From positions 1,240,001 to 1,304,000 of the forward strand of contig CP003083.1 in the NCBI GenBank assembly GCA_000306725.1: 64,000 bases of DNA. The letters are read 5' to 3'. The notes beneath the pieces were generated by a model, which was not told the DNA's origin, did no database searches, and saw only the letters and a list, made by a program, of their open reading frames with translations. The DNA comes from Methanolobus psychrophilus R15 (GTDB lineage: Archaea; Halobacteriota; Methanosarcinia; Methanosarcinales; Methanosarcinaceae). The position numbers and the translations under genes are program-made. Of the stretch, positions 150-3,109 are shown in pieces (position 1 is the first letter of the stretch; every line of letters starts with the position of its first letter).

Positions 150-616
150 AATACTTAATTTGTTTATCTATTATTTATATTTTAGTCTAATGTGGGTCTA
201 GTTTATCGAAATCCTCTGTGAATTATGGCTATGCTGTCTGGTTAGAGTTTTTATAATAGTATGGTGCTTACTTCATATGTATTTTTACTGAGTCAGAAGA
301 TAGTTTCAATAAGGGTATATAATGTGCTACCTTAAATAGAATAGGGCATAGTAGTAACTGGAGATAAGCGAAGATCGTATAATTCTCTTACACATGTGCC
401 CCCCTGTAAATAAGTGAGGCATAACCCCGATTTCCTATATTGTATCATAAAGTCCCCTTCAAAAACTCCCATTAACTCTCAGCAACCCAGGAGAGTTTGG
501 TTTAACTGGGAAATAGTGTAGAGCTTATTGCAGGAGGTCCACCAAGGGCATCATATTCCCACATGATGTCCTTTTCTTTTATTCGAAATTCAGTTTCAAT
601 AAGTGTACATATTTAG
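150..616. other. Intergenic stretch between two insertion sequences
   Basis: I see no convincing gene here. The stretch is A/T-rich and holds two small dyads: AACTCTC/GAGAGTT at 474-497, and GGGCATCAT/ATGATGTCC around 554-577, which look like insertion-sequence ends or terminators. The 12-mer AGTTTCAATAAG occurs at 302-313 and again at 592-603, just before the IS1-like left end. It probably contains the end of the IS5-like element and older insertion debris. Confidence 0.4.
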
Positions 617-837
617 CCGTGTCCTTGAGTGATTGACTTTTTCTTTATATACTTGTAAATCAATTTTCAAGGGGGAAAGTGAAATGACTTCTGAAATAGA
701 TTTGTCACACTTTTGGTGTTTAAATGAAAATTGTCCTGATTATGGATTAGAAAATCAAGGAAATATTGTTTTTAAATAAAGATATGGCAAGAGTAATCAC
801 GCACTTCTTAAATGTAGAACATGTAAGCATTGCTTTA

Positions 838-980
838 GTCAACGACCCCCGGCTGAAGTCGGGGGCTTGCACTTCAAGTTCTCAGTTAGCTGAGCAGAGT
901 ACAATAGGCTGGTTGATAGCAGCCCTTGAAGCAATGTTCTTACTAGCATTCCAGTCTGCATTTTCGGTATGACCACATTT
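838..980 (-). ncRNA. Candidate omega/reRNA at the tnpB 3' end
   Basis: In IS200/IS605 elements the guide RNA for TnpB overlaps the end of tnpB and runs to the right end. Here that is the minus-strand segment ending at 838, with the GC-rich hairpin at 846-865 just after the tnpB stop. The guide would then be the flank starting at 837 (minus strand taaagcaatgcttacatgtt), which is IS1 transposase sequence. The 5' limit given is a rough guess; only the hairpin and the element end are seen directly. Confidence 0.4.
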
Positions 981-1952
981 CTGACAGGAGAATGCATCCT
1001 GTTTCTTTCTGTTCTTATCTGAAATATGACCGCATCCTGAACATTGCTTTGATGTATATGCAGGATCAACGAACCTGACAATAACTCCATTGATTTTGGC
1101 TTTGTATTCTATGAATTGTCGAAGCTCGTTAAATGCCCATTTGACATATTTGTCCCTATCTACTTTTCTAACCGTTGTCCTTTCCCGAATCCCTGTAAGT
1201 TCTTCCAGAGCTATCGATCTGTTTGTGTCTTTAGCAGTTTGGACAATGTCTTTTGAAATACAATGGTTTGTATCTTTTTTGAATCTCCTTTCCTTTTTGC
1301 TTATTTTTCTCAGATGTCTCTTAGCTGAATAAGTTCCAACTGATTGTAGTTTTGCCTTTATCCGTGCATATTTTTCCCTGACTTTCTGGCATTTTTCTCC
1401 GGAATATATCTTTCCGTCAGAAGTTGCTGCAATGTTAACGATTCCAAGGTCAACTCCAAGGAACTCTTCCGAATTGATCGGAGTTGCTTCTGGTTGGTCG
1501 ATGACTATCTGGAGGTAGAATTTCCTGTTTTTATATATGAGGTCAATCTGCCCTTTTTTATTGTCGATATTTTTGTCTTTCCGGTATTTTATTTGCGTTT
1601 TAATTCTACCATCTAATGTAAGAATGGAAACAATATCTTTGCTGATAGATAGTATCCTCGGATCATAAACAACCGCCCCGTGTGGTTTGAATTGATGAAT
1701 TATCTTTTTATCGACTTTGTAACTCTCAGCTACTTTTGCAAATGCTCTGACAGCCAGTTGAGAGGATAAGGAGAATTTTTCTCTGATCTCGTAATAAAGG
1801 TGTTTCTGTAATTTGAATTTGCTGAAAACTCTTTTATTGTGTGCAAATTTTGAAATGTAATTGCATGCTTTATTAAAAGACTCCATTGTTCTCAGTAACT
1901 GGTCATGTTGTTCCGGAGTGGTTACTAATTTACTTTTAATTGTTAGGAGCAT
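882..1952 (-). CDS. tnpB: TnpB, RNA-guided nuclease of IS200/IS605 family
   Basis: The 356-residue protein has the usual TnpB layout: an N-terminal helix-turn-helix and wedge part, RuvC-I with Asp in LGVDLGIVNIA (about residue 168), RuvC-II with Glu in IALEELTGIR (about 250), a zinc ribbon with CSGC and CQKC (304-326), and RuvC-III with Asp in NADWNAS (about 333). All catalytic and zinc residues are present, so it may be active. TnpB proteins use an RNA from the transposon right end to cut DNA next to a transposon-adjacent motif and so help keep the element. The unusual context is its position inside an IS1 transposase gene. Confidence 0.92.
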   Translation of the reverse strand: MLLTIKSKLVTTPEQHDQLLRTMESFNKACNYISKFAHNKRVFSKFKLQKHLYYEIREKFSLSSQLAVRAFAKVAESYKVDKKIIHQFKPHGAVVYDPRILSISKDIVSILTLDGRIKTQIKYRKDKNIDNKKGQIDLIYKNRKFYLQIVIDQPEATPINSEEFLGVDLGIVNIAATSDGKIYSGEKCQKVREKYARIKAKLQSVGTYSAKRHLRKISKKERRFKKDTNHCISKDIVQTAKDTNRSIALEELTGIRERTTVRKVDRDKYVKWAFNELRQFIEYKAKINGVIVRFVDPAYTSKQCSGCGHISDKNRKKQDAFSCQKCGHTENADWNASKNIASRAAINQPIVLCSAN

Positions 1953-3109
1953 GCTATCACATAAAGATATGAATACATATGATTTTAAAGCACAGTAAGT
2001 AGACTGAAAGTATTCGGTTTCAGATTTAAAATGACGGTTAGATCGCTATAGTTAACGGAATTCCTCCTGCAACTGAAGTTGCAGGCATCCTTCCTCAATT
2101 TATCGTGAAACGAGAGGCACAGCTTTTTTCGGACTGGATACTCCTCAGGAAGAAGTTCTGAGAACTTTGGCCATGATCTCTGAAAAAGGAAGTATCTGTG
2201 GAGTTGCAAGAGCTACTGAACATGATAAAGGCACAATTTGTAAATGGGTTAAGGTCGCAGGAGCTCATTCTAAAGAAGTTACAGATTACTTCCTTAAGGA
2301 TATGAACCTTAAGAAAGTAGAAGTTGATGAGATCTGGTCATACATAAAAAAAGCAAAAGAACGTGACTGAAGATGATTCTGAAGAATATGGGAGCGTATA
2401 CTCATTCACTGCAATTAAAAGTGATACCAGACTGTTTCTTGTCTATCATGAAGGAAAACGGAGTGCAGAGGATGCAATCAAGTTGTTCGGTGAGATTGAG
2501 AAGATGCGCAACGCATCTTCTCCTATCCCCATATTCATTTCAAATGACTGGGATGCCTTTGAAGAAGGACTTGTAAACGTTTGTGGTCAGATGGAACTAT
2601 CACAATACAAAGGCATTGGAAGAAAACAACTACACAGTTGATTCCAGTTGAGAATCTAAAGTATATCAAAGTATATAAGAAAAAAGTAAAAGGTTATGTG
2701 ATCAGTACAGTTTCTTGTATTGTTTTTGGAGATCCTGATGATACATTCAAAATACTTAGAGCTTGTTTTGAGGACTGTATTGGTACTTCATATGTAGAAA
2801 GGATGAATCTTACAATTCGAACTTCTCTTGCAAGGTTCATAAGGAAAGGAATGAATTTTAGTAAAACACTGGCAATGCATCAGAAATCCCTTGATCTCTT
2901 CCATGCGTGGTATAATTTTGTCAAACCTCATGATTCTCTGAAAGTTAAAGTTAATTCAGGGAAAAGAAAATGGTTGCAAAGAACTCCGGCAATGGCGGAA
3001 ATAATAACTGACCATATATGGACTTAAAAAGAACTACTAACATTCAGAGTTCCAGTTCAATAACATAAGGACACGACCTCTTTTTAATATAGTAGCGGTT
3101 GAACCATGA

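What the first reader, a model, noticed from the sequence alone, without database searches (positions are those of the whole stretch)
818..837. TnpB guide would target the IS1 transposase gene
If the omega RNA ends at 838, the guide (taaagcaatgcttacatgtt) is IS1 sequence and TTCAC stands as the adjacent motif in any intact IS1 copy. A working TnpB here would cut other copies of this IS1 in the genome, so one selfish element could restrain another while copying itself into those sites.
Basis: inference. Interest (0 to 1): 0.6.

Follow-up and report, generated by a model that had tools for sequence, protein, structure and literature searches.

The report
TnpB element nested in dead IS1
A small RNA-guided-nuclease transposon sits inside a broken IS1 transposase gene of an archaeon (probably Methanolobus), so its predicted guide RNA naturally spells IS1 sequence; this is the ordinary consequence of where it landed, and the genome holds no second copy of this IS1 for it to cut.

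Summary
The sequence observation is right; the inference drawn from it is not supported in this genome. Complement(838..2104) is a 1,267-bp, TnpB-only (IS1341-type) IS200/IS605 element with an intact TnpB, inserted in a decayed IS1-family transposase gene. Paralogues, relatives and an uninterrupted IS1 in a sister species fix its ends: the left end follows TTCAC and the right end finishes ...TTGAC at 838. The predicted guide is therefore 837..818 (minus strand), and TTCAC plus guide is the uninterrupted IS1 site. A pseudoknotted right-end RNA scaffold ending at 838 shows strong covariation across 20 relatives.

The genome has no other copy of this IS1 and no TTCAC plus seed match, so the guide has no in-genome target except the element's own excision product. 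No exact target exists in about 85,000 species genomes. The nearest are IS1 copies in other species: one mismatch at guide position 5, or a perfect 12-nt seed with three distal mismatches.

TnpB guides record their insertion site by construction. Of 24 related elements, 3 (this one included) sit in another element's gene; none of the three has an empty target in its own genome. Most likely this is ordinary self-retention or homing. Restraint of IS1 across strains is possible but untested.

The parts
838..2104 (-). IS200/IS605-type, TnpB-only (IS1341-like) element, 1,267 bp
   Evidence: End comparison with paralogues and with the uninterrupted IS1 in G022; relatives are 1.21-1.36 kb
882..1952 (-). 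tnpB, 356 aa, intact frame; RuvC residues D168/E250/D333 and zinc-finger C304/C307/C323/C326 present
   Evidence: NF040570 E=2.6e-54; PF07282 and PF01385; alignment of 10 relatives; dN/dS 0.23 and 0.17 against two relatives
838..980 (-). Predicted omega-RNA scaffold (right end); 5' limit not determined
   Evidence: 25 proposed pairs incl. pseudoknot: 92% of cells pair vs 75.6% in shuffles, covariation score 0.489 vs 0.185
845..866 (-). Terminal hairpin of the right end
   Evidence: 9 pairs, 7 with changes on both sides in 20 relatives, 96.7% paired
912..917 (-). 5' arm of the predicted pseudoknot (pairs with 838-843)
   Evidence: GTCAAC:GTTGAC, GTCAAT:ATTGAC and GTCAGC:GCTGAC covary
838..843 (-). 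3' arm of the predicted pseudoknot = right-end terminus (G)TTGAC
818..837 (-). Predicted 20-nt guide = IS1 sequence flanking the right end
   Evidence: guide starts directly after the end motif in a tested archaeal TnpB (PMC11043419)
2105..2109 (-). TTCAC: insertion site / presumed TAM flanking the left end
2040..2104 (-). Left end with hairpin GCCTGCAACTTCAGTTGCAGG
   Evidence: Conserved in paralogues
616..837 (+). 5' part of the interrupted IS1 (in-frame TAA at 777-779)
2105..3077 (+). 3' part of the interrupted IS1 (1-bp deletion near 2632)

Best explanation
This is an ordinary TnpB-only IS200/IS605-family element that inserted 3' of a TTCAC in an IS1 transposase gene. A TnpB omega-RNA carries whatever lies beyond the right end, so its guide is IS1 sequence by construction. 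The target it would recognise, TTCAC plus guide, is the empty site. Its likely role is retention or homing: when a Y1 transposase supplied in trans excises the element, TnpB cuts the resealed donor joint and repair from the sister copy restores the element. The same activity could convert an empty allele of this IS1 entering from another strain. In the resident genome it has no other IS1 copy to cut, and the occupied site is presumably protected because TTGAC, not TTCAC, precedes the guide match there. Shown by sequence: ends, guide, empty-site structure, intact nuclease residues, RNA covariation, absence of in-genome targets. Inferred from studied relatives: expression, cleavage, TAM identity, self-protection, trans-mobilisation and repair.
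For: Empty-site alignment across the junction with no duplication or loss. Conserved LE-flank TTCAC and RE-end TTGAC/CTGAC in relatives from several archaeal groups and a few bacteria. Every relative has a different guide, i.e. its own flank. Intact TnpB under purifying selection. Covarying omega-RNA scaffold ending at 838. Y1 TnpA genes elsewhere in the genome. No TTCAC plus seed match or second IS1 copy in the genome. Published mechanism: TnpB cuts the TAM-flanked donor joint and is proposed to favour reinstatement (PMC8612924), and acts as an IS drive in plasmids (PMC11870625). In an archaeal TnpB the guide starts right after the end motif, and that end motif does not license cleavage (PMC11043419).
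Against: No expression or cleavage data. Elements with Y1 transposases in this genome appear to have right ends finishing TTCAC rather than TTGAC, so cross-mobilisation of this element is not shown. The element could be immobile now.
Confidence: 0.65

Rival explanations
1. Dead-end relic: the element landed in a defunct IS1 (or the IS1 decayed afterwards) and is no longer mobile or active; the guide has no consequence. Same anatomy and same origin of the guide as the best explanation, but no present-day function.
For: Host IS1 is a pseudogene; no TnpA in the element; some paralogues in the genome are decayed or rearranged.
Against: tnpB frame, catalytic residues and right-end structure are all intact; low dN/dS. 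The dN/dS covers the lineage, not only the time since insertion.
Confidence: 0.26
2. Inter-element restraint: the TnpB cuts other IS1 copies, limits IS1, and copies itself into them.
For: TTCAC is present at the homologous site in 13 of 15 related IS1 copies. One in the same genus has a single guide mismatch at position 5; one in another genus matches the first 12 nt perfectly; a third has one mismatch in the first 12. About 12 nt decide specificity in ISDra2 TnpB (PMC10097598), and a position-5 mismatch with the cognate TAM was cut at full efficiency in vitro by a Sulfolobus TnpB (PMC11043419).
Against: No second copy of this IS1 and no matching site in the genome. No exact target in about 85,000 species genomes; none (TTCAC plus first 16 nt) in the viral contigs. 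No other member of this TnpB group was found in an IS1 among the 24 elements with both ends located. The two other nested elements (in OrfB/TnpB genes) also have no empty target in their genomes. The other close IS1 copies differ at 3-7 guide positions.
Confidence: 0.07
3. TnpB as a trans-acting regulator (guide-directed repression without cutting) rather than a transposon nuclease.
For: None specific; such exapted TnpBs are known from the literature (own knowledge).
Against: All RuvC residues present; element ends intact; guide matches its own flank rather than a promoter elsewhere.
Confidence: 0.02

Closest known systems
ISDra2 TnpB / IS200-IS605 family (PMC8612924, PMC10097598)
   Same: TnpB with RuvC D-E-D and zinc finger, RNA from the right end with 3' guide equal to the flank, TAM equal to the left-end insertion motif, pseudoknotted scaffold
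   Different: TnpA absent; TAM presumed TTCAC rather than TTGAT; activity untested
Sulfolobus islandicus TnpB7 (PMC11043419)
   Same: Archaeal TnpB; guide starts directly after the right-end motif; end motif differs from the TAM, which protects the occupied site
   Different: That element's end motif is TTCAC and its TAM TTTAA; here the end motif is TTGAC and the presumed TAM TTCAC
Halobacterium sotRNA / IS1341-type elements (discussed in PMC12558985)
   Same: Archaeal TnpB genes with a sense-overlapping RNA at the 3' end of tnpB
   Different: Expression demonstrated there, not here; no Rfam omega-RNA family matched here
TnpB drive of IS elements in plasmids (PMC11870625)
   Same: Guide records the insertion site and removes empty alleles
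   Different: There the target is a plasmid site present in many copies; here no empty allele is present

Membership tests
TnpB (RNA-guided endonuclease of IS200/IS605) | TnpB protein family with RuvC D/E/D and CxxC zinc finger | tested here: met
   NF040570 185 bits (cut-off 100); residues present
TnpB (RNA-guided endonuclease of IS200/IS605) | Right-end RNA scaffold with a guide beginning at the element boundary | tested here: met
   At sequence level: boundary at 838 and covarying structure incl. pseudoknot; transcription itself not tested
TnpB (RNA-guided endonuclease of IS200/IS605) | RNA-guided, TAM-dependent DNA cleavage | not testable with these tools
   Needs protein and RNA
IS200/IS605 element | No target duplication, insertion 3' of a short fixed motif, subterminal hairpins | tested here: met
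   Clean empty site, TTCAC, LE and RE hairpins
IS200/IS605 element | Y1 transposase TnpA within the element | tested here: not met
   Only tnpB between the ends, as in IS1341-type elements; Y1 genes occur elsewhere in the genome
IS1341-type (TnpB-only) subgroup | TnpB with IS605-like ends and no TnpA | tested here: met
Inter-transposon restraint by TnpB | Guide matches intact copies of another element in the same cell | tested here: not met

The most novel reading that the evidence does not exclude
The TnpB acts across strains as a barrier to, or homing vehicle into, this IS1 lineage: incoming IS1 copies carrying TTCAC plus a near-matching seed in the conserved transposase motif (...HCFSETRGT...) are cut and converted to TnpB-carrying, dead IS1 copies.
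Probability: 0.07. Interest if true: 0.55.

Novelty: new member of a known kind. Interest (0 to 1): 0.22.

Why it matters
It is a clear natural example of how TnpB guides arise: the guide is simply the landing site, here inside another transposon. The survey suggests that nesting in other elements' genes recurs (3 of 24 related elements), yet it did not yield a guide with a second target in the same genome in any of the three cases. That argues against reading such guides as evolved inter-transposon weapons without copy-number evidence. The covarying scaffold and the apparent TTCAC/TTGAC pair give a ready hypothesis for an untested archaeal TnpB group.

Tried and rejected
(2) Rfam gave only a weak HEARO match on the opposite strand (21.7 bits against a gathering score of 83), treated as chance. 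(3) A 12-nt seed match in the genome at 758403 (CCCACTAAAGCAATGCT) lacks the TTCAC motif. (4) Exact-target scans of all species genomes and of viral contigs found nothing. (5) A split IS1 in G106 looked like a second TnpB insertion, but the insert is another transposase-like gene at a different site. (6) Contig breaks near the site in G032 are not TnpB junctions, since TTCAC continues into the guide sequence there. (7) Literature searches found no report of TnpB guides restraining another IS in the same cell; the library is partial, so this is not proof of absence.

Full report
Observation. Read on the minus strand it is TAAAGCAATGCTTACATGTT, directly after a hairpin-bearing end that closes ...CCCCCGACTTCAGCCGGGGGTCGTTGAC at 838. 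The gene upstream of it on the minus strand, 1952-882, is a 356-aa TnpB (NF040570, 185 bits; PF07282; PF01385) with RuvC residues D168, E250, D333 and the four zinc-finger cysteines. dN/dS against two relatives is 0.23 and 0.17, so the lineage is under purifying selection. No tnpA lies between the ends.

Boundaries. Three lines of evidence fix the ends. First, DNA similarity with the paralogue L007 in the same genome stops at the same base (838), and paralogue L006 shares the same right-end terminus. Second, across relatives the sequence before the left end is TTCAC in 21 of 24 elements with both ends located (the finding pattern itself favoured TTCAC-like motifs), and the right end closes with TTGAC or CTGAC, from Methanosarcinaceae to Thermoplasmata and a few bacteria. 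Third, a same-genus genome (G022) carries the same IS1 uninterrupted. The two flanks of the window's element, joined, align to it over 1.2 kb at 83% identity with no gap at the junction. The element is therefore complement(838..2104), 1,267 bp, inserted 3' of TTCAC without duplication.

RNA. In 20 relatives the last 105 nt of the element fit one structure of 25 pairs: a terminal hairpin, a repeat/anti-repeat-like stem, a small hairpin, and a pseudoknot between that small hairpin's loop and the last six bases of the element. 92.0% of cells pair (75.6% in shuffles, at most 50.6% when slid) and the covariation score is 0.489 (0.185 in shuffles). The pseudoknot changes in step: GTCAAC with GTTGAC, GTCAAT with ATTGAC, GTCAGC with GCTGAC. 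The structure was drawn by eye on this alignment, so the controls are somewhat favourable to it. It resembles the pseudoknot seen in the ISDra2 TnpB structure, where bases -5 to -3 before the guide are paired (PMC10097598), and supports an omega-RNA scaffold ending at 838.

Target. The host gene is IS1-family and already broken: an in-frame TAA at 777-779 and a 1-bp deletion near 2632 relative to the G022 copy. In the whole genome (one contig, 99.97% complete) the only other IS1 relative is 26% identical at protein level. TTCAC plus the 20-mer occurs nowhere; the only site within 3 mismatches is the element's own junction, with TTGAC. No TTCAC plus first-12-nt match exists either; the next best is CCCAC plus a matching seed at 758403, which lacks the motif. 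No exact target occurs in 84,980 species genomes, and no TTCAC plus first-16-nt match in 2.9 million viral contigs; both scans may leave out records of the host or of very near genomes. Among 15 related IS1 copies in the family, 13 keep TTCAC. The best targets are G022 (one mismatch, position 5) and G065 (first 12 nt perfect, three distal mismatches). TnpB can tolerate such differences: about 12 nt matter in ISDra2 TnpB, and a position-5 mismatch next to the cognate TAM was cut as well as the perfect target in vitro by a Sulfolobus TnpB (PMC11043419). So cross-species cutting is conceivable, but there is no intragenomic victim.

Context. Each related element has its own guide. Three of the 24 lie in another element's gene: this one in IS1, one in same-genus genome G019 (L091) and one in G030 (L104), both in OrfB/TnpB genes. 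Neither of the other two has an empty copy of its target in its genome. Nesting in transposons is thus recurrent, as expected where transposon genes are common and harmless landing sites, and no multi-target guide was found.

Mechanism. The best reading is the published one: TnpB cuts the resealed donor joint after excision and repair restores the element (proposed in PMC8612924), which can also act as a drive into empty alleles (PMC11870625). The occupied locus carries TTGAC before the guide match; in the Sulfolobus case the transposon-end motif does not license cleavage. Y1 transposases occur elsewhere in this genome, but the elements around them appear to end in TTCAC, so mobilisation in trans is inferred only. 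Expression and cleavage are untested, so a present-day relic with the same anatomy remains the main rival.

Verdict. The claim that it would cut other copies in this genome fails, since there are none. The finding is an ordinary member of a known kind with a mildly instructive nesting. The host is placed in or near Methanolobus from the names of relatives' records (where locus L116 is the named record of the same sequence as same-genus locus L090); the window's own record is unnamed.

Noticed in passing
L006 447-2720 (own genome about 579,600-581,900): A paralogous TnpB element carries a near-exact internal tandem duplication of about 600 bp, an in-frame TGA in the first copy, and a separate 125-bp solo right end nearby.
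   Followed up: partly
L047 (G016:C8) 1586-1869: Deletion derivative of the same element family: about 38 bp of left end joined to about 250 bp of right end, resembling a small non-autonomous element that could still encode an omega-RNA.
   Followed up: no
L091 (G019) and L104 (G030:C1:2233099): Two other members of this TnpB group are inserted inside OrfB/TnpB genes of other elements; neither guide has an empty target in its own genome.
   Followed up: yes
L051, L052, L053 (own genome): Elements with or near Y1 transposases in this genome appear to have right ends closing ...GGGTGGTAGTTCAC or similar, the motif that flanks the left end of the TnpB-only group; their own TAM was not worked out.
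   Followed up: no
window about 2352-2365: The host IS1 and its relative have a run of A at the overlap of two reading frames, consistent with IS1-type programmed frameshifting.
   Followed up: no
L009/L011 (own genome 568,591-570,439): Two more TnpB gene copies of a 57%-identical group lie head to tail within 2 kb and look truncated.
   Followed up: no
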